A stretch of DNA of 64,000 nt from a cyanobacterium PCC 7702 (GTDB taxonomy: Bacteria > Cyanobacteriota > Cyanobacteriia > Cyanobacteriales > Nostocaceae): the NCBI GenBank assembly GCA_000332255.1, contig KB235926.1, positions 4,312,096 to 4,376,095 on the forward strand, given 5' to 3'. The stretch's first letter is position 1; the number at the start of each line of letters is the position of its first letter. The notes under the pieces are model-generated. The model had not been told where the DNA came from, did not search any database, and saw only the letters and a list, made by a program, of their open reading frames with translations. Positions 51,792-63,746 of this stretch are shown here, one piece after another. The position numbers and the translations under genes were made by a program.

Positions 51792-52643
51792 TCAAGCTTC
51801 GTAAAGTTTGCGTAATATAGAAAGCTTTTCCTTGATGCGATCGCGCATGGATGCAGGTGAAACAATTACGCACTCATCCCAGTAACGTGCAACTTCTCGA
51901 ATTAACCAAAAATGATTGACAACTTTTCGTACCACTTGACGTACGTCTCCAATCGTTTCGTCTTCTAAGTCATCTTCCCGAGGTTGATAGGATTTTACCA
52001 TCGAGCCCCGAAATTGTAAGTGCACTTTCAGAAAATCTAATCCCTCTCGCCATTCCCCGGGTGCGGGAAGGATGGAGTAGATTCTATTGAAGGTCAAACA
52101 GCGATTGTGCCAAAGCTCTGGTAGATCGGGAATGTTGTTTTCCACGTCTTCGGTTTCTTCACACCAGATCATTAAATAAAAGCGTTTATCAAAGAATCTA
52201 GGTTCTGCATAACGTACCGTGTACTGTAGTTCTTCATCTTGGGAATTTTTGTACAGCAGGTAAAAGGGTTGGCGATTTTTTCGGTATTCATCTATTTGAA
52301 TTCGCCATGGCTCTATATGCTTACTTACTTGTTTGAGCAGAGATTGGCGGACAGATGCATTTAGATTTCCCCGTTCTAATAAAAGTGTAATTACAGTTTC
52401 GGCTTCGCCAATCCGACCTGCATCGTTCAAAGCTTTAATAGCTTCTTGCAAAGCGTTAACTTGGTTGTTATCCAGTGTAAAAGGCTTTCCTATCTCCAGA
52501 TGCTTTTGAGCGATCGCGACAATCAAGCCGGAAATACTAGGTTCTTTACCCCAGGTAATGCCAAATTTGCGAGCGATTTCTTCTAGCTGTTCCTTGGTTC
52601 CAGGGGGAATTGACAGTGTAATTGTGTCTTTTTTCCGAGCCAT
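51792..52643 (-). CDS. WYL-domain transcriptional regulator of the type I-D CRISPR-Cas locus
   Basis: A 283-residue regulator. The N-terminus MARKKDTITLSIPPGTKEQLEEIARKFG looks like a ribbon-helix-helix DNA-binding segment; a linker follows; the C-terminal part (about 110-270, including LPELWHNRCLTFNRIYSI) fits a WYL domain, and the ending DECVIVSPASMRDRIKEKLSILRKLY is typical. The equivalent gene in Synechocystis 6803 (Sll7009) represses the I-D locus. It is divergent from the cas operon, with 155 bp between; a dyad overlaps the region just before its ATG. Confidence 0.82.
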   Translation of the reverse strand: MARKKDTITLSIPPGTKEQLEEIARKFGITWGKEPSISGLIVAIAQKHLEIGKPFTLDNNQVNALQEAIKALNDAGRIGEAETVITLLLERGNLNASVRQSLLKQVSKHIEPWRIQIDEYRKNRQPFYLLYKNSQDEELQYTVRYAEPRFFDKRFYLMIWCEETEDVENNIPDLPELWHNRCLTFNRIYSILPAPGEWREGLDFLKVHLQFRGSMVKSYQPREDDLEDETIGDVRQVVRKVVNHFWLIREVARYWDECVIVSPASMRDRIKEKLSILRKLYEA

Positions 52644-52644
52644 T

Positions 52645-52703
52645 GCAAAAATGTACTTGCATTTTGGAATTTTTTATTTTATTATCTTGATTAATGCATT
52701 TTG
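52645..52703. promoter_or_regulatory. Candidate WYL operator: dyad plus repeated half-site
   Basis: AAAATG-N6-CATTTT (52648-52653 and 52660-52665) forms a perfect dyad two bases from the WYL start codon. The half-site GCATTTTG recurs exactly at 52659-52666 and 52696-52703, 37 bp apart. Placement between divergent regulator and cas genes is what an autoregulated repressor would use. Binding is inferred. Confidence 0.5.
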
Positions 52704-52804
52704 AGAAAAAGAAGTGGATATAACCAATCTAATATCCGTAAAAACAACACTCTCAAAGCAGAATTTTTGTAAATAAACTGAATTATGTATCAGAGTTTTT
52801 GCGT

Positions 52805-53041
52805 ATGCCAAAAGCGACAAGACTTTTAAACCGACCTCCCCAAAGCTTAGAAGAAGCCTATTTCAGCGAAATTCGTCCCAAACTTTATGAAAATCACGCA
52901 CATCACCACCAGTACGGTGTCAGAACAGGAACAACTCTTGCACAGCACCTAGATTCAGCTTGTCAATTCGCACTTACAGCTACTGGGATTGCTGGGGTCA
53001 CTGCTGGATCGCTGATATATATTCGTTTCTCTGACAAATAA
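52805..53041 (+). CDS. 78-residue CRISPR-linked protein, HD-like N-terminus
   Basis: A small protein starting MPKATRLLNRPPQSLEEAYF at ATG 52805 (a TTG lies two codons upstream). LYENHAHHHQYGVRTGTTLAQHLDSACQFALTATGIAGV has a His-rich patch and then HLDSA. It resembles the opening of HD-type nuclease domains of CRISPR helicases and Csc3-like proteins, but stops after TAGSLIYIRFSDK, before a second HD could appear. It begins the cas operon and ends six bases before cas3'. It may be a free HD-remnant, a small accessory subunit or an anti-leak control. I do not recognise a named family. Alternatives: truncated gene or upstream-ORF-type leader peptide. Confidence 0.55.
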   Translation: MPKATRLLNRPPQSLEEAYFSEIRPKLYENHAHHHQYGVRTGTTLAQHLDSACQFALTATGIAGVTAGSLIYIRFSDK

Positions 53042-53047
53042 CCTCAC

Positions 53048-55228
53048 ATGTCTGAAAGTTACAAAATTACTCTCAAACCAATTTATTCTGAAACCATACC
53101 CACCCCTAATGGCGTGAAATTACCTAAAAATTGGTCACTTTCTTGGCATCAAGCAGCAACATTAGAAGCTCTGCGCACTGCAGATATTGATGTAGTATTT
53201 AATACTGCTATGACTGGTGATGGTAAAAGTTTGGCCGCTTATTTAGAAGTTCTTCAAGGTGAACTTTGCGCGATTGGACTTTACCCAACTAACGAACTCG
53301 CTCGTGACCAAGAAATACAAATTAGAAGTTATGTAGAAGAATTTCAGTTCCCAGAGCAACCGCGAATCGCGCGACTTAGCAGTGCGGATTTAGAAACTTA
53401 CGCAGAAAATGAAGGATTGAGAAAAAAAGCAGCGATCGCAACTCTCGCCGGTCAACGAGAAGTACTATTAACTAACCCCGACATTTTCCATTACCTACAT
53501 CACGGTGCATACATTATTCATGGCGACAGTCCCGACCAGTTGTGGGGAAAAATTGATAAAGATTTTGACTTATTTATATTTGATGAATTTCATGTTTTTG
53601 GAGCTCCCCAAATTGCTAGCATTATTAATACAATGCTTTTAATTCGCTGTACCAATCGTGGTAAAAAATTTTTATTTCTTTCTGCTACACCAGACAAAAA
53701 TTTAATTTCTAAATTAGAAATAGCAGGATTTCGGTGTCGAGAAATCAATCCCCAAGCACAAAATAAATATCAATTTCCTGACACCCCAGCACAAGAACAG
53801 CAACTCAAATCTCAGGCGTGGCGACAAGTAGCACGAACGATTTCACTAAATTTTATTTCCTTAGAACCTACTGACAAAGCTTCTGAAACTTGGTTAAAAG
53901 AAAATAGCGAACTGATTGTCAGCCAATTTCAACAATATCGAGGAAGCAAAGGTGCAATTATTCTCAATTCTATTGCAGTAGTCAAGCGACTAACTCCATT
54001 TTTTCAAAAAATTTTACAGCCTTATGATTTAAAAGTGAGAGAAAATACAGGCCTATCCAGTCAAAGTACAAGAGAGCAAAGCCTTGCTGCTGACTTAGTT
54101 ATCGGTACTAGTACGATAGATGTTGGTGTAGACTTTAAAATTAATTTTCTAATTTTTGAATCTTTTGACGCGGGAAATTTTATCCAACGCTTAGGAAGGT
54201 TAGGAAGACACGATGGATATAAGCAAGAAGGTCAGGAAATTAAATTTGCAAACTTCACAGCTTATGCTCTTGTTCCTAATTTTTTAGTAGAGCGTTTGTT
54301 TCAAGTAGAGTCTCCACCTTTAACAGTTAATTGTGTTTGCGATCGCCTGACTTTTCAAAATATTATCAAAGAGCAATATCGCCAAATTAATGATTTTCAA
54401 GGCTACTATCGCCGTTGGGGCGCAGTACAGTCATTTTGCTTGTATCATCGACTGAACAATCCCACAATTCAACAACAGTATGCCCGAAGTCGAGAACAGT
54501 TTCAACAAGCGTGTGAAAAAGTATTTGAAACTAGCTTGAAATCTGTAGCTGGACGCATTTGCGCATGGAAACAAGATTGGCAAAAACTTTCCGGAAAATC
54601 AGCAGGGAACCCCATCGCTGAAGATGCTGCTAGTTTTCGGGGTTCTAGTCCTTTACAATGTGGTTTGTACGATTTAACAGAAGCAAACGAAGCAGATAGG
54701 TTCAAAACCTACGACCTACCGGGGATTTTGAGTAATTTAGAAATTGACATGTGGACGGAAACAGCATTTATAGAGATGCTGAAAGAAACCGCACAACGCA
54801 TCGGACAACCCATCCCCAAAGGAAGATTTGCTCATTGTTTAGCATTTATGAAGTTACGTTCCTATCGTGAGGAACGTCTCAACTGGAAATTTATCTACTC
54901 TGAAGATTTACAGGTAATTGCTGATGCTTGGAAGGTTCAAATTCTAAAGGGTATAGAAATTTGGCAACCAGAAAACCGCTGGATTGAGGAAATTAACAAA
55001 TGTTTGAGAAAAAAAGCTTTGGTTTGTTATGTAATTCGTCGTCCGGTCTCAGACGTGCGGATGCGGTTGCGTCTACCAATGCATTTTCAGATTTATCCCA
55101 TCAGCGATCGCTATAGCTTTCATGATGTTACTGCACCTTATGCGATCGCTTTTGGTCACTCTGCATTACTGCTAGATACACTAGCATACACCTTGAAAAG
55201 CAAAGGAGATGAAGTGTGGATTACTTAG
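53048..55228 (+). CDS. cas3: CRISPR type I-D Cas3' helicase
   Basis: A 726-residue DExH helicase. Walker A is AMTGDGKS (54-61), motif II DEFH (179-182), motif III SATP (212-215), and motif VI QRLGRLGRHDG (about 378-388). No HD domain is fused, as in type I-D where nuclease activity resides in Cas10d. It unwinds DNA during interference. The 3' end overlaps cas10d by 13 bp. No truncation is seen. Confidence 0.93.
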   Translation: MSESYKITLKPIYSETIPTPNGVKLPKNWSLSWHQAATLEALRTADIDVVFNTAMTGDGKSLAAYLEVLQGELCAIGLYPTNELARDQEIQIRSYVEEFQFPEQPRIARLSSADLETYAENEGLRKKAAIATLAGQREVLLTNPDIFHYLHHGAYIIHGDSPDQLWGKIDKDFDLFIFDEFHVFGAPQIASIINTMLLIRCTNRGKKFLFLSATPDKNLISKLEIAGFRCREINPQAQNKYQFPDTPAQEQQLKSQAWRQVARTISLNFISLEPTDKASETWLKENSELIVSQFQQYRGSKGAIILNSIAVVKRLTPFFQKILQPYDLKVRENTGLSSQSTREQSLAADLVIGTSTIDVGVDFKINFLIFESFDAGNFIQRLGRLGRHDGYKQEGQEIKFANFTAYALVPNFLVERLFQVESPPLTVNCVCDRLTFQNIIKEQYRQINDFQGYYRRWGAVQSFCLYHRLNNPTIQQQYARSREQFQQACEKVFETSLKSVAGRICAWKQDWQKLSGKSAGNPIAEDAASFRGSSPLQCGLYDLTEANEADRFKTYDLPGILSNLEIDMWTETAFIEMLKETAQRIGQPIPKGRFAHCLAFMKLRSYREERLNWKFIYSEDLQVIADAWKVQILKGIEIWQPENRWIEEINKCLRKKALVCYVIRRPVSDVRMRLRLPMHFQIYPISDRYSFHDVTAPYAIAFGHSALLLDTLAYTLKSKGDEVWIT

Positions 55229-58200: not shown

Positions 58201-58482
58201 GCAGAAATTTTTAAACTCATGGACCGCGTTCGTGCTTCTACTGCTGAAGGACGTTGGGTAATAAGTAAACGTGAAGAAGAACGACAAGCGATTTTAGATT
58301 TTGCACGGTATTTTGTTGTGGAGGTATTTGAGAAATCATTTGCAGGCGATCGCGCTCGTTTAGCAGGACGCCAACTCAACCTAATTCGAGATACTTGTGA
58401 ATTTCTATATCGTCTGGAAGATGATAAAGAAAATGCCCAAAATCATGAAAACTCTCCGGAATCAGATCGTGAAAACGAGTAG
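55216..58482 (+). CDS. cas10d: CRISPR type I-D Cas10d (Csc3) large subunit
   Basis: A 1088-residue type I-D signature protein. Start is GTG 55216 with AGGAG seven bases before. The HD nuclease motif is H140-D141 (GFILHDFEKF), with H99 a candidate partner ligand. The body carries Cas10-like palm/zinc parts that are hard to place by eye; no GGDD cyclase motif is seen. With Csc2 and Csc1 it builds the I-D Cascade, and its HD cleaves target DNA. A 24-bp tandem duplication (57457-57504) sits in the C-terminal half. It overlaps cas3' and is followed by csc2. Confidence 0.93.
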   Translation: MDYLDNHDFGFEGNSDRTIETQEELLTLRLLREAIEAQNPGDTVMKDFANYVVPNLLRIATGVTAKGGKFFDRIDQQRQTEGLTKVRRNNAADQSLNAHLLNGLFPANLIERRLQQLDTTVRRAVEEKERRIAIAGFILHDFEKFPDVPENSRTLSPAKHRQIIDEKIRQLGLDKFIDPKHPETYQNYLDDLLCLAYNAQRRWDTNWNFSESGLRPALKDRTLRSLSDLTCLADSLASIVKRPQDAENPRLKEIIHNLSDGQLKLTYHSIAENRGVLTNIVNNALIQAHITLNTDTQTYYEPLLYLPTGVIYLATRHAPPVSTENLPELVVNKIKSLCTEKLKLKQTGFNRDGKGIKYAEYYDLFFDPPSLMQVALDATLRIVNSQKESYARSRSEKLVNLVKRQKQGNLPVKNFEFSDDIRIDQIAEFCDLVSRKIWNAIVNRIRAVSKKNKNSPSIPTLDLTDEIVKFWNLEQYTQEIRHIQDLSNTGGTPYEWYYIAAKYLQKNPGIEDVRQTCTQLINYLTNIISPILAQYKFPDGWEDLRQWVLQVVMLPTVDQQLSPHTRTENFLKELNNYNAAKKSGRGRQLICSISHSAYTVTEQMESAVLFTPQVYTNKQMLGGSDAKRHISSIAGLEIMLRQILMNQTQAVGKKFEDSNYRYLYLYPTYYFTPETNKFLHKVYSRIAQTRFDTSIRNHFITQDLQAHLEKENYQSVDAFLINENPDSKTFKLSYPEDEPLTFYFMALPPEQKNTKPPEQKNTNTESWIMPCWLALTFPIILDVKTVVSESPIPPFNDGAEFEETVFFDSAPYAFRTLVKRDKFRLDYILEGWNENDIQYPAPLNVLTAAYAIHLDVNARREKSVYNPNWGKFTELAQDFETSPLYVFSYLNRWVRKQKLETARIEKIRLYTYYFYPCFDPYAKFDPMREELIIQQESSLNHPQKLTELYRRFYRANRRYNPKSNAILKPINIAAETILKAESSVFHGETLIAAVAAEIFKLMDRVRASTAEGRWVISKREEERQAILDFARYFVVEVFEKSFAGDRARLAGRQLNLIRDTCEFLYRLEDDKENAQNHENSPESDRENE
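57457..57504 (+). repeat. 24-bp tandem duplication inside cas10d
   Basis: Two adjacent copies of a 24-bp unit starting CCACCAGAACAAAAAAACAC differ only in the last base. They add an octapeptide PPEQKNTK/N twice, in frame. The duplication includes A7 runs, consistent with recent replication slippage. It is a surface-loop insertion, since no neighbours are disturbed. Confidence 0.95.
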
Positions 58483-58540
58483 AGATAAATTTCAAACAAA
58501 TTTTGACCAAAACAAACAATTAATCAAGGGAGATTTCACC

Positions 58541-59557
58541 ATGTCATTGTCATTTTTAACGACCGTTGATGCTAAATTGTTTCTAACCGAAATTCCCTAT
58601 AAACCTATGGGAAAATATGCCCATTTTCTCACTATCCGCGTTACCGAATCTTATCCTCTTTTTCAGACCGACGGAGAACTCAATAAAGCACGAGTCAGAG
58701 CGGGAATCAAAGACAGCACTACTATTAGCCGTATATCTATGTTCAAGCGCAAACAGTCTACTCCAGAGCGTTTAGTTGGTCGCGAATTGCTGCGTAATTA
58801 TGGTTTGATGACTGCTCAAGAGTGTGAATACAATGTCAATTTTGCCATGAATAATCCCGATTGTATTATTTACGGCTTTGCTATTGGTGATTCTGGATCT
58901 GAAAAATCAAAAGTTGTTGTCGATACGGCATTTTCTATTACAGCATTTGATGAGTCACACGAAACATTTACTCTTAATGCTCCTTATGAAAATGGAACGA
59001 TGACTTCTAAAGGTGAAAATGGTTCCAAAGGGGAAACCAGCAATCTTATCAATCAGCAAGACCACATCAAACCGCAAGTTTTCTTTCCTAGCATTATCAC
59101 GCTCAAAGATCCAACAGAAGCTAGTTTTCTCTACGTATTTAATAATATTCTACGCACTCGCCACTATGGAGCCCAAACTACTCGTACAGGTCGCATTAGA
59201 AATGAATTAATTGGTGTTGTATTTGCAGATGGAGAAATTACAAGTAATCTGCGCTGGACTCAAGCAATATACGATTATATGAAATCTAATAAAACTTTGA
59301 ATCCACCCGATCCTTTGAATGAAGATGACGTAACTACTGCTGCTAAAAGTACGATTCAGACTTTAATGGCTGATGAATTTATTGTTCATACTGACTTTAT
59401 TGGTGATGCTTTTATACCTCTTTTGGATGAAGTCAAGACACTCACAAGCAGCGAAAAAAAAATGAAAGCAATTTTGGAAAAAGCTGATGCAGAAGCTAAA
59501 AAATATGCCAATAAATATATTAGTAAAAAGAAAACTGCTGCTAAAGCGGAGTCATAA
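58541..59557 (+). CDS. csc2: CRISPR type I-D Csc2 (Cas7-like backbone)
   Basis: A 338-residue Csc2 starting MSLSFLTTVDAKLFLTEIPYKPMGKYAHFL. An in-frame extension starts at 58397, but ATG 58541 has AAGGGAGA at normal distance and matches the family. It is the crRNA-binding backbone subunit with an RRM-like fold. The segment KRKQSTPERLVGRELLRNYGLM and NVNFAMNNPDCIIYGFAIGD are typical. csc1 starts two bases after its stop. Confidence 0.93.
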   Translation: MSLSFLTTVDAKLFLTEIPYKPMGKYAHFLTIRVTESYPLFQTDGELNKARVRAGIKDSTTISRISMFKRKQSTPERLVGRELLRNYGLMTAQECEYNVNFAMNNPDCIIYGFAIGDSGSEKSKVVVDTAFSITAFDESHETFTLNAPYENGTMTSKGENGSKGETSNLINQQDHIKPQVFFPSIITLKDPTEASFLYVFNNILRTRHYGAQTTRTGRIRNELIGVVFADGEITSNLRWTQAIYDYMKSNKTLNPPDPLNEDDVTTAAKSTIQTLMADEFIVHTDFIGDAFIPLLDEVKTLTSSEKKMKAILEKADAEAKKYANKYISKKKTAAKAES

Positions 59558-59559
59558 TA

Positions 59560-60270
59560 ATGGCTATTATTTACCGCTGTCGATTAGAATTACATGACAG
59601 CCTTTATTACGCCACTCGTGAAATAGGGCGATTGTACGAAACTGAACCAATAATTCACAATTACGCCCTTTGTTACGCCCTGGGATTGATTGATAGTGAG
59701 GAATATTCCACAAATGTCCCAGAAGAACATTCCTACCGCTATTTTTGTCCGGAACAAGTTCCCAAATATGAAGAACATTTGACACCACTGAATCAACAGG
59801 GTATTTACGTTACTCCAGCGCGATCGCTCAACCATTCTAGTATTCTCAACACCTGGAAGTATGCTAACAACAACTATCATGTGGAAATGAAAAAAACTGA
59901 GAAGAATATTCCTAGCTTTGGTAGAGCTAAAGAAATTGCACCAGAAAGTCAATTTGAATTTTTTGTGATTTCTCAAAAGCAACTTCAATTACCAAAATGG
60001 ATTCGCTTGGGAAAATGGATGAGTAAGGCTGAAGTAATACAAAAAGAACCACCATTAGCACATAAAATCAAAGAAGATGTGTTTGTCTGTTCTCATCCTT
60101 TGAATCCTTTGGATGTTATGTTTACCAATCGCATTATCAGCTACGATGTAGTAAACATGCCTCCAGTTAGCCTCATCCAAAATGTGAAAATGCAAGGAAA
60201 ATACTACCAATTTGATAGTATTGAAGACTTGAAAATTCCAGTGCAAATGAAATATTGTTTTCGCAGTTAA
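59560..60270 (+). CDS. csc1: CRISPR type I-D Csc1 (Cas5-like)
   Basis: A 236-residue Csc1 beginning MAIIYRCRLELHDSLYYATREIGRLYETEPIIHNYALCYALG, the family N-terminus. It is the Cas5-like subunit that holds the crRNA 5' handle. The body includes VTPARSLNHSSILNTWKYANNNYHV and ends with QMKYCFRS. It is tightly coupled to csc2. Confidence 0.93.
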   Translation: MAIIYRCRLELHDSLYYATREIGRLYETEPIIHNYALCYALGLIDSEEYSTNVPEEHSYRYFCPEQVPKYEEHLTPLNQQGIYVTPARSLNHSSILNTWKYANNNYHVEMKKTEKNIPSFGRAKEIAPESQFEFFVISQKQLQLPKWIRLGKWMSKAEVIQKEPPLAHKIKEDVFVCSHPLNPLDVMFTNRIISYDVVNMPPVSLIQNVKMQGKYYQFDSIEDLKIPVQMKYCFRS

Positions 60271-60443
60271 TCAATATCGGGCGATCGCCCAAAAGCTTTC
60301 CTTCTCCCAATCAAAGAAGATTTACGGGTGTAGAAAGCGCGATCGCTCCTTTCACCCACAGTCAAATAAACGCGATTTACTGTCTCGACCCAGAGTCTTG
60401 GGCGATCCCGCGCTCTTACACAACTAGCAGAACAACCTTAACT

Positions 60444-61286
60444 ATGCCATACAGCTTAGTTCTTAACCTTTTACCTCAGTCCCCCATTCCACCTCAATAT
60501 CTTAGCGGTAGACATCTCCACGCTCTGTTCTTAAAACTTGTCAGCTCCGTGGATACCGCATTAGGCGATCGCCTCCATAGTTCTACCGCTGATAAAGCTT
60601 TCACCCTCTCTCCCCTGCAAGTGGTCAAAACAAGAGAATTTGCTAAACATAAATCCCGAATTCACACAACCAATACCTTGCAATGGCAACATCAAAAACC
60701 CATCCCCACCGGAACGCCCTGTTGGTGGCGCATCTCCCTACTCGACGATACCCTCTTTGGCCAATTAATGCAACTATGGCTAAATTTAAATCCTTCTCAC
60801 CCTTGGCATCTTGGTCCTGCTGACTTATACATTACTAGCATTCAAGGTACCCCCCAACCAAGTCAACCGTGGGCCAATGCTTGCTCCTACGCTCAATTAT
60901 ACGAACAAGCTAGCGAGAGCGATCGCACCATTACCTTCACCTTCGCAACACCAGTAGCTTTCCGTCAAGGCGAATACGATACCTTTCTTCCCACTAAAGA
61001 ATCTGTATTTAATAGTCTTCTTCATCGTTGGAATAAATACAGTGGAATCGAATTTACTAACATCAACTTGGAATCAATTCATCCCATTTTTTTTAATATC
61101 AATACGCAAATTGTGGACAACTACGACACTAAATTTATCGGTTGTGTCGGCGAAATTAGCTATCGAATTTTAGGAGATGTAAAACCAGAAGAAATTAAGC
61201 AAATAAACGCCCTAGCTGACCTAGCCTTGTATGCAGGAGTAGGACGCAAAACAACCATGGGTATGGGAATGGTGAAAAGGAAATAA
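60444..61286 (+). CDS. cas6: CRISPR Cas6 endoribonuclease
   Basis: A 280-residue Cas6 starting MPYSLVLNLLPQSPIPPQYLSGRHLHALFLKLVSSVD. The Gly-rich C-terminal signature is LYAGVGRKTTMGMGMVKRK. It cleaves pre-crRNA at the repeat hairpin to leave an 8-nt 5' handle. H27 or H29 (GRHLHALF) are candidate catalytic histidines. A longer frame opens at 60255, but its first 63 residues do not look conserved. The 173-bp gap from csc1 holds several HIP1 octamers. Confidence 0.9.
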   Translation: MPYSLVLNLLPQSPIPPQYLSGRHLHALFLKLVSSVDTALGDRLHSSTADKAFTLSPLQVVKTREFAKHKSRIHTTNTLQWQHQKPIPTGTPCWWRISLLDDTLFGQLMQLWLNLNPSHPWHLGPADLYITSIQGTPQPSQPWANACSYAQLYEQASESDRTITFTFATPVAFRQGEYDTFLPTKESVFNSLLHRWNKYSGIEFTNINLESIHPIFFNINTQIVDNYDTKFIGCVGEISYRILGDVKPEEIKQINALADLALYAGVGRKTTMGMGMVKRK

Positions 61287-61465: not shown

Positions 61466-62134
61466 ATGACACTAAATCAAAACTCAATTAACTCAATCTC
61501 TCCTTTTTCTTATTTCCCATCTTATGCAAACTCTTATTTATCCTTGCAAGAAGAATATATCCCCATTTCAGCATTAAACCACTATATCTATTGTCCTCAC
61601 CGTTGTTGGCGAATGTTTTGTGCAGGAGAGTTTTTTGATAACCAGTACACCATTGAAGGTTCAAGCTTACACGAACGCGTTCACACAGTCGGAGATGGAA
61701 ATCGCGAACAAACTTGGCAAATAAGAGCAATTTGGTTGAAATCCGACCAATACAAACTTATTGGTAAAGCCGATTTAATTGAATTAGAAAACGGTGAATG
61801 GTATCCAGTCGAATATAAACGCGGACACAGAGGTGAATGGGATAACGATAAATTACAACTTTGTGCTCAAGCACTATGTTTAGAAGAAATGACAGGAAAA
61901 ACCGTTAACAATGGCTATGTCTACTACGCACTCTCACATCAACGCCAGTTAGTAGAAATTACTGAGAAACTGCGTCAAAGCGCGATCGCCACCATTGAAG
62001 CTGTCAAACAACTACTACGTTCTGGTAAAATGCCAAAACCCACTAAAACTAAACGCTGCGACGAATGTAGTCTTTACTCATCGTGCTTACCTCAAGCTAG
62101 TGAAAAACTTAGGCGCTATCTAGAAGATAGGTAA
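61466..62134 (+). CDS. cas4: CRISPR Cas4 exonuclease (Fe-S)
   Basis: A 222-residue Cas4. Iron-sulfur cysteines are C43 and the C-terminal C198, C201, C207 (KRCDECSLYSSC); C47 is also near. The RecB-type nuclease residues are D103 (GKADLIE), E116 and K118 (PVEYKRG). It trims prespacers and helps PAM selection with Cas1-Cas2. It begins the adaptation module. Confidence 0.93.
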   Translation: MTLNQNSINSISPFSYFPSYANSYLSLQEEYIPISALNHYIYCPHRCWRMFCAGEFFDNQYTIEGSSLHERVHTVGDGNREQTWQIRAIWLKSDQYKLIGKADLIELENGEWYPVEYKRGHRGEWDNDKLQLCAQALCLEEMTGKTVNNGYVYYALSHQRQLVEITEKLRQSAIATIEAVKQLLRSGKMPKPTKTKRCDECSLYSSCLPQASEKLRRYLEDR

Positions 62135-63252: not shown

Positions 63253-63461
63253 AAACTGCAAAAGGCAGAATATACAAAACAAAACGAAACAGTCCTGACT
63301 ACCAATTGAGCGTAGCATCACATCCTAGAATACCCAAGGCAAAGAAAATAAAGGAATTTCATGACAGAATTCTGTCCTCTAACCTTCCCATGTCCGCCTT
63401 GTATGGTACTCAGTCGAATTATTTTTGCAATACTTCCTGTGGAAAAGGAGAAAAATGCTTC

Positions 63462-63746
63462 ATGAATGTTGTTGTGTCTTACGATGTTTCAGAAGATAAG
63501 CGCCGTACAAAAATCCACAAAGTTCTTAAGTCATACGGACAATGGGTGCAGTATAGCGTGTTTGAATGTCAACTTACTGATACTCAATATGCAAAGTTGC
63601 GATCGCGCCTGCAAAAGTTAATTGAACCTGATACTGATAACATTCGCTTCTACTTTTTGTGCGCCTGCTGTTTCGGTAAAGTTGAACGAATTGGTGGTCC
63701 ACAACCCTGGGACGAAAGTATTTTCTTTGCTGAATCGCGCGGATAG
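63462..63746 (+). CDS. cas2: CRISPR Cas2
   Basis: A 94-residue Cas2, MNVVVSYDVSEDKRRTKIHKVLKSYGQWVQYSVFECQL, with the ferredoxin-like fold and the conserved first-strand Asp (YDVSEDKRR). It bridges Cas1 dimers. The frame is open upstream to 63306, but the first 52 codons are not Cas2-like. AGGAG lies 11 nt before the ATG, somewhat far; another ATG at 63455 makes a 14-codon out-of-frame peptide. The cas1-cas2 gap is 209 bp, longer than usual, and holds the palindrome GACAGAATTCTGTC (63363-63376). Confidence 0.93.
   Translation: MNVVVSYDVSEDKRRTKIHKVLKSYGQWVQYSVFECQLTDTQYAKLRSRLQKLIEPDTDNIRFYFLCACCFGKVERIGGPQPWDESIFFAESRG

What the first reader, a model, noticed from the sequence alone, without database searches (positions are those of the whole stretch)
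52805..53041. Unnamed 78-residue ORF at the head of the type I-D cas operon
The sequence shows a small protein between the WYL regulator and cas3' with its own ATG, ending six bases from cas3'. It has HAHHH and, in LAQHLDSACQF, a pattern like the first part of HD-type nuclease domains, but it stops before a full HD fold. Cas10d already has its own HD, so this is not simply the missing nuclease. It could be a conserved accessory subunit of cyanobacterial I-D systems, a remnant of an HD domain split from cas3, or a leader peptide.
Basis: partly seen in the sequence, partly recalled or inferred. Interest (0 to 1): 0.75.

Follow-up and report, generated by a model that had tools for sequence, protein, structure and literature searches.

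The report
Stub of a swapped-out cas10d gene
This small gene carries the first 65 codons of a different version of the CRISPR gene cas10d, likely left behind when two type I-D immunity operons recombined, so it is probably a scar of module swapping rather than a new defence protein.

Summary
The 78-codon ORF is really there. It is not a recurrent accessory subunit, and it does not come from cas3. Codons 1-65 match the N-terminus of Cas10d (Csc3) from a second cyanobacterial I-D lineage ('B type': WYL, cas10d-csc2-csc1-cas3'). The window's own cas10d belongs to another lineage ('A type': WYL, cas3'-cas10d-csc2-csc1). B-type homology stops at codon 65; A-type homology starts at the cas3' ATG. 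The divergent WYL regulator also belongs to the B-type clade. So the locus is a hybrid: B-type regulator, promoter region and cas10d 5' end, fused to an intact A-type operon. Of 104 genomes searched, 20 match the ORF: 18 with an intact B-type cas10d, one with an internally deleted cas10d, and this one. The HD motif is incomplete (first His kept, His-Asp lost). Swapping of effector modules over a common adaptation module is already published; this is a legible scar of it. Possible residual role: a translated leader for cas3' under the B-type regulator, inferred and untested. The direction of the swap, its right-hand end and the origin of the last 48 bp are unresolved.

The parts
51792..52643 (-). 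WYL-type regulator of the B-type clade
   Evidence: 59-79% identical to the WYL beside 9 of the 10 B-type cas10d loci, and 39% to the tenth, L009; inside the WYL-B clade of a 39-row tree; WCX domain just above cut-off, PADLOC WYL
52644..52804 (.). regulatory region of B-type origin; keeps the block AATGTACTTGCA near the WYL start
   Evidence: alignment with five B-type intergenic regions, four of which have the same block and L023 a near copy; single 75% DNA match to L003 running from WYL into the stub
52805..52999 (+). codons 1-65 of a B-type cas10d (stub of the HD domain; H48 kept, HD at 80-81 lost)
   Evidence: codon-by-codon comparison mostly identical or synonymous up to codon 65
53000..53047 (+). 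junction segment of unknown origin: codons 66-78, stop and 6 bases
   Evidence: 18-23% ungapped DNA identity of codons 66-78 to five B-type genes; no source found in the held loci; apparent match to cas10d codons 188-196 not above chance
53048..55228 (+). cas3' helicase, A type; homology to A-type loci starts at its ATG
   Evidence: TIGR03158, 421 bits; 85% to same-genus G001; base comparison with L064
55216..58482 (+). cas10d/csc3, A type, intact, with its own H99 and HD 140-141
   Evidence: TIGR03174, 1039 bits; PADLOC PDLC02019; residue numbers
58397..59557 (+). csc2 (cas7d), as listed from the first GTG
   Evidence: TIGR03157; 79-86% to the 14 fetched A-type loci of the same family, 35-38% to B-type loci
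59560..60270 (+). csc1 (cas5d)
   Evidence: TIGR03159; 24-28% to B-type loci
60255..61286 (+). cas6; start of the backbone shared by A- and B-type loci
   Evidence: TIGR01877; tree mixes A and B loci
61466..62134 (+). cas4
   Evidence: TIGR00372
62249..63145 (+). cas1 (type I-D)
   Evidence: TIGR04093 best match at 377.6 bits, just under its cut-off of 385; TIGR00287 above cut-off
63306..63746 (+). cas2, as listed from the first TTG
   Evidence: TIGR01573
63964..64000 (+). first CRISPR repeat (37 bp) of the array that continues beyond the window
   Evidence: four copies in L012; similar repeats beside B-type loci L010 and L011

Best explanation
Codons 1-65 of the ORF are the 5' end of a cas10d gene of a second I-D lineage, sitting beside that lineage's WYL regulator and fused to an intact A-type operon, which likely arose by recombination between two I-D loci that exchanged whole effector modules. 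Shown: the B-type kinship of WYL, of the intergenic region and of codons 1-65; the start of A-type homology at the cas3' ATG; no further match to B-type Cas10d in the genome. Inferred: a single recombination event, most likely an A-type effector module replacing a resident B-type one (the order of events is not settled). Inferred working today: the protein fragment has no nuclease function because it lacks the His-Asp pair. The stretch probably serves as promoter, 5' leader and start region for cas3', so the A-type operon would now be under the B-type WYL regulator. Ribosomes that finish the 78 codons would stop 6 bases before the cas3' start and could re-initiate there.
For: PADLOC Cas10_Id model PDLC02021 matches residues 5-66 at profile positions 2-63 of 893, and the full B-type gene L003 matches the same model with 1786 bits, while the window's cas10d is best matched by a different model. 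Ten loci encode the same N-terminus, each in front of a csc2 and behind a WYL gene. DNA homology to L003 runs from WYL into the stub in one piece. WYL tree: the window lies in the WYL-B clade with L002, L003, L010, L011 (support 94). Codon comparison breaks after codon 65; A-type homology begins at the cas3' ATG. The A-type regulatory region with CGGACA boxes is missing. A search of the own genome with full B-type Cas10d finds only residues 2-65 at E up to 1. Of 29 other genomes with an A-type cas3', only G007 matches the ORF, in a separate B-type locus. The AlphaFold model of the B-type N-terminus (260 residues) best matches Cas10d of the type I-D Cascade, 7sbb and 7sba. cas6, cas4, cas1 and cas2 trees mix A- and B-type loci about as much as shuffled labels do, as module exchange predicts.
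Against: The last 48 bases (codons 66-78, stop and 6 bases) have no identified source. The right-hand crossover was not located: the window's cas6, cas4 and cas1 are most identical to the same-genus A-type locus L064 (78, 79, 87%), so the adaptation genes do not specifically speak for a resident B locus; the nearest B-type loci by WYL (L002, L003, L010, L011) were held without their cas6-cas1 genes. SelO, a neighbour in the window, and the I-D locus lie on different contigs in G001 and in G002 (both drafts), so synteny does not settle the order. The stub branch shows dN/dS 0.058, no relaxation, so either truncation was recent or something still constrains it. Four other A-type loci have a WYL-B-like regulator without any stub, so the regulator alone is not diagnostic.
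Confidence: 0.92

Rival explanations
1. Reverse order: an A-type locus was resident and only its front end (WYL-A, promoter) was replaced by a B-type front end (WYL-B, promoter, 65 codons of cas10d). The result is the same hybrid, but the event was capture of a regulator and promoter.
For: cas3' 85%, csc2 86%, cas1 87% identical to the same-genus A-type locus G001/L064; no match to the ORF in the other two genomes of the genus.
Against: G001's I-D locus and its SelO gene, a neighbour in the window, lie on different contigs, so the A-type locus is not shown to be in its old place; published cases replace the effector genes and leave the adaptation module (PMC5704561, passages).
Confidence: 0.4
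2. The stub is retained as a functional translated leader: its 78 codons carry ribosomes to the cas3' start and set its expression.
For: Stop codon 6 bases before the cas3' ATG; the A-type leader is gone; branch dN/dS 0.058 with 1 rejected (LRT 55).
Against: One genome only; the branch also covers time as an intact gene; a stop about 13 codons past a junction is nothing unusual; cas3' of most fetched A-type loci has no such leader.
Confidence: 0.3
3. Conserved accessory subunit of cyanobacterial I-D systems (one of the first reader's guesses).
For: Real ORF in the operon; low dN/dS.
Against: 0 of 23 A-type loci match it; 16 of the 19 fetched A-type loci with WYL and cas3' in view have at most 200 bp between the two genes, too little for it; the 18 intact-frame matches among 104 genomes are in frames of 899-927 residues, the length of cas10d.
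Confidence: 0.02
4. Split HD nuclease (cas3'') detached from cas3.
For: HD-like His in LAQHLDSACQF.
Against: Homology is to Cas10d, not Cas3; the His-Asp pair is missing; the window's Cas10d has its own HD.
Confidence: 0.01

Closest known systems
Type I-D Cas10d/Csc3, second cyanobacterial lineage (PADLOC PDLC02021 / PDLC01588)
   Same: Codons 1-65 are homologous from the start codon on, 75-81% identical in the ten loci, with the first His of the HD motif.
   Different: Only about 7% of the gene; no His-Asp, no later domains; ends in 13 unrelated residues.
[quoted passage not shown] 2017, PMC5704561)
   Same: Different effector genes beside related adaptation genes (cas6-cas4-cas1-cas2); that paper clustered Cas10d of I-D to look for such cases.
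   Different: Here the left boundary falls inside the large-subunit gene, and the old regulator stays with the other type's effector genes. The passages read do not mention leftover gene stubs ('remnant' occurs nowhere in the main text); figures and supplements were not seen.
Synechocystis type I-D operon with WYL regulator Sll7009 (PMC10212523, passages)
   Same: A WYL regulator associated with the I-D system; Sll7009 is reported as a negative regulator.
   Different: The window pairs an A-type operon with a WYL of the B-type clade and an extra ORF in front of cas3'.

Membership tests
Cas10d/Csc3 (as a working large subunit) | N-terminal sequence of the family | tested here: met
   PDLC02021 E 1.5e-29 over residues 5-66
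Cas10d/Csc3 (as a working large subunit) | complete HD motif (His ... His-Asp) | tested here: not met
   H48 present; HD at positions 80-81 of B-type Cas10d lies beyond the break
Cas10d/Csc3 (as a working large subunit) | full length (about 900 residues) | tested here: not met
   78 codons; no match to the rest of B-type Cas10d in the genome
In situ effector-module replacement | divergent effector genes on a shared adaptation module | tested here: met
   window against B-type loci: csc2 35-38%, csc1 24-28%, but cas1 63-85%; A/B labels mixed on cas6, cas4, cas1, cas2 trees
In situ effector-module replacement | boundaries of the replaced segment visible in the sequence | tested here: inconclusive
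   left boundary between 53000 and 53047; right boundary not located
In situ effector-module replacement | conserved flanking synteny with an unreplaced locus | tested here: inconclusive
   WYL shared with B-type loci, but the two genes further left were not found in the held stretches of L002-L011; SelO and the I-D locus on different contigs in the other two genomes of the genus
Conserved I-D accessory subunit | recurrence in the same place in related loci | tested here: not met
   0 of 23 A-type loci; 104 genomes
Translated leader coupled to cas3' | stop codon next to the downstream start | tested here: met
   TAA then 6 bases then ATG
Translated leader coupled to cas3' | co-transcription and dependence of cas3' translation on the leader | not testable with these tools
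   needs RNA and reporter data

The most novel reading that the evidence does not exclude
The scar is a working regulatory graft: by keeping the B-type WYL, promoter and first 65 codons, the locus put an A-type CRISPR effector under a different ligand-sensing regulator, and the cas10d stub now acts as a translated leader that sets cas3' output. That would be rewiring of CRISPR control by a partial module swap.
Probability: 0.3. Interest if true: 0.5.

Novelty: new member of a known kind. Interest (0 to 1): 0.27.

Why it matters
It turns an apparent unknown CRISPR protein into a recognisable event: a partial swap between two I-D operons whose left breakpoint can be placed within 48 bases. It warns that small ORFs at the head of cas operons can be gene stubs. 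It also shows that regulator and effector can be separated by such swaps: in the WYL tree 6 of 39 rows pair a regulator of one clade with an effector of the other type (two of the six, L032 and L079, sit on long branches and are less sure). That makes it testable whether WYL regulators are interchangeable between I-D lineages.

Tried and rejected
Accessory subunit: rejected, no recurrence. Split from cas3: rejected, homology is to Cas10d. Codons 66-78 as a piece of cas10d around codons 188-196, suggested by an alignment: rejected, 808 of 1000 shuffled tails scored as well at DNA level (five genes) and 315 of 1000 at protein level (17 genes). Remainder of the B-type operon elsewhere: a genome search with B-type Cas10d found only the stub; B-type cas10d, csc2 and csc1 queries found nothing in 35 kb downstream, part of which reads N; the rest of the genome was not searched for B-type csc2, csc1 or cas3'. 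Sigma-70-like promoter before the ORF: none on the plus strand. Structure of the stub alone: mean pLDDT 68.7, no PDB match. PDB sequence search with L003 Cas10d: no match. The 195-base DNA tree could not place the stub firmly, so a WYL plus Cas10d tree was used for the codon test; L009, whose WYL is of the other clade, and L023, whose cas10d has a deletion, were left out of it; the fits ran a limited number of steps. Of 29 foreign A-type cas3' loci at 48% identity or more, 20 were fetched with long flanks; nine were not, but their genomes were searched with the ORF.

Full report
Observation. The ORF is at 52805-53041 (+), 78 codons, ATG start, its stop 6 bases before the cas3' ATG, with a WYL-type gene on the opposite strand upstream. 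cas3', cas10d, csc2, csc1, cas6, cas4, cas1 and cas2 follow, each open and matched above cut-off by an NCBIfam model. Pfam and NCBIfam list nothing for the ORF itself.

What it is. A protein search returned seven relatives besides the ORF, four of them named Csc3 by a source. All seven share the N-terminus and then run on into a VHDLNKL motif that the ORF lacks. A scan of genome contigs gave ten loci; in each the match is the start of a long cas10d gene of another type, followed by csc2. The PADLOC model Cas10_Id PDLC02021 matches residues 5-66 of the ORF at profile positions 2-63 of 893, E 1.5e-29, and matches the full L003 gene with 1786 bits; the window's own cas10d is best matched by PDLC02019. 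The NCBIfam Csc3 model misses the L003 gene and falls below its cut-off on L010. A review states that Cas10d falls into four lineages, two of them cyanobacterial (PMC10212523, passages). That A and B type are those two lineages is my inference, and the names are mine.

Two operon plans. B type: WYL (-), cas10d, csc2, csc1, cas3'. A type: WYL (-), cas3', cas10d, csc2, csc1 (annotated record L032). The window's csc2 is 35-38% and its csc1 24-28% identical to those of B-type loci, whereas its cas6, cas4, cas1 and cas2 are 57-87% identical to the B-type ones in view. On trees of cas6 (27 rows), cas4 (25), cas1 (25) and cas2 (21) the A and B labels are mixed: 7, 6, 6 and 3 changes against shuffled means of 6.3, 6.2, 5.5 and 2.9; few B rows (7, 7, 6, 3) and weak branches limit these trees. 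On the WYL tree (39 of 42 loci gave a row) the labels do cluster: 6 changes against 12.8, none of 500 shuffles as low. So regulator and effector mostly travel together over a common backbone. Replacement of effector genes beside an untouched adaptation module, also within one subtype and with boundaries visible at nucleotide level, was reported in 2017 (PMC5704561, passages).

The window is a hybrid. Its WYL lies in the WYL-B clade, next to L002, L003, L010 and L011 (support 94). It is 59-79% identical to the WYL of nine of the ten B-type loci (the tenth, L009, 39%) but 36-42% to that of 16 of the 19 fetched A-type loci that show one. The other three (L071, L078, L079; 55-59%) and the plasmid locus L032 (47.5%) fall in the WYL-B clade without a stub. 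DNA homology to L003 runs from 51799 to 52968 in one alignment; the intergenic block AATGTACTTGCA is kept. Codon by codon, identical or synonymous codons dominate up to codon 65; ungapped DNA identity to five B-type genes is 68-73% over codons 1-65 and 18-23% over codons 66-78. On the other side, homology to the same-genus A-type locus L064 starts at the cas3' ATG, and the CGGACA boxes seen in most A-type intergenic regions are missing. The junction therefore lies within about 53000-53047, whose source was not found.

How rare it is. The ORF was searched in 60 relatives (9 of 60 match) and in 80 genomes of the family (18 of 80), 104 different genomes in all. Of the 20 that match, 18 have open frames of 899-927 residues, G009 has a cas10d with an internal deletion, and G000 has the stub. 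Of the 29 other genomes with an A-type cas3' at 48% identity or more, only G007 matches, in a separate B-type locus. None of 23 A-type loci matches the ORF (L031 and L080 hold little sequence before cas3'), and 16 of the 19 fetched A-type loci with both genes in view have at most 200 bp between WYL and cas3'. A profile search for short relatives gave 26 proteins. Of these, 19 run into HDLNK, two end near codon 65 and are named partial, and five break before the HD pair: this ORF, P0133 (81 residues, 27 kb contig, break near codon 66), P0143 (contig length that of G009's), P0145 (517-base contig) and P0146 (39 residues, 568 kb contig). Broken starts of B-type cas10d thus occur elsewhere; their context was not seen except for G009.

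HD motif. In B-type Cas10d the His of TLAEHLDSA is residue 48 and the His-Asp is 80-81. Of the 28 columns in which the 11 B-type rows of an alignment agree, the ORF keeps 27, H48 among them, and has Q for E47; the His-Asp is lost. An AlphaFold model of the first 260 residues of L003 (pLDDT 81.9) best matches Cas10d in 7sbb and 7sba (E 2.5e-4 and 3.2e-4). The model of the stub alone has mean pLDDT 68.7, two helices of good confidence and no PDB match. A nuclease role is therefore very unlikely.

Selection. A codon model on codons 2-65 with 17 rows gives dN/dS 0.058 on the stub branch and 0.089 elsewhere (LRT 1.1, not different); a value of 1 is rejected (LRT 55). Codons 2-55 give the same picture (0.057 and 0.077). 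The branch includes the time as an intact gene, so this says that truncation is recent or that the stub is constrained, and cannot separate the two.

Mechanism proposed. Shown: hybrid structure, loss of the A-type regulatory region, stop-to-start spacing. Inferred: recombination between two I-D loci, then use of the B-type promoter by the A-type operon under the B-type WYL; translation of the stub and re-initiation at cas3'. In Synechocystis the WYL regulator Sll7009 is reported as a negative regulator (PMC10212523, passages). Order of events: an A-type module replacing a B-type one is my first choice because published cases run that way, but the window's cas6, cas4 and cas1 are most identical to the same-genus A-type locus, so the reverse order is nearly as likely.

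Literature. Six searches of open-licence PMC papers gave, in the listings shown, no title or abstract start that describes such a stub. Three papers were read in passages only: PMC10212523, PMC12669027, PMC5704561; supplements were not available. Module swapping as such is known, so the finding is filed as a new member of a known kind.

Noticed in passing
L023 7109-8217 (genome G009): A B-type cas10d with an internal deletion (about codons 51-569 missing, frame lost) behind an intact WYL; an independent broken cas10d.
   Followed up: partly
L004 4562-6001; L064 6772-7377; L071 6874-7483: A block of about 0.6 kb is shared between a B-type locus (between WYL and cas10d) and A-type loci (between cas3' and cas10d), 82-90% identical in DNA; a common block upstream of cas10d that could guide recombination.
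   Followed up: partly
L009 4155-6001: The mirror case: a B-type effector behind a WYL of the A clade with CGGACA boxes; its 1 kb intergenic region is a mosaic of pieces found upstream of cas3' and between cas3' and cas10d in A-type loci such as L072.
   Followed up: partly
L071, L078, L079, L032: A-type effector operons beside WYL-B-like regulators without any cas10d stub.
   Followed up: no
window 55216-55228: cas3' and cas10d overlap by 13 bases, whereas the fetched A-type relatives have about 0.2 to 3 kb between them, filled in annotated plasmid loci by small genes such as HepT-like, nucleotidyltransferase and DUF433 proteins.
   Followed up: no
proteins P0133, P0146: Two more short proteins that share the Cas10d start and break off, near codon 66 (27 kb contig) and near codon 33 (568 kb contig); their neighbourhood was not seen.
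   Followed up: no
G007 (contigs 22 and 138): One genome carries both a B-type and an A-type I-D locus, so the two can meet in one cell.
   Followed up: no
L003 6001-8697; L010 6001-8694: The NCBIfam Csc3 model TIGR03174 misses or underscores B-type Cas10d (no match; 29 bits against a cut-off of 60), so such genes and their fragments can go unnamed.
   Followed up: no
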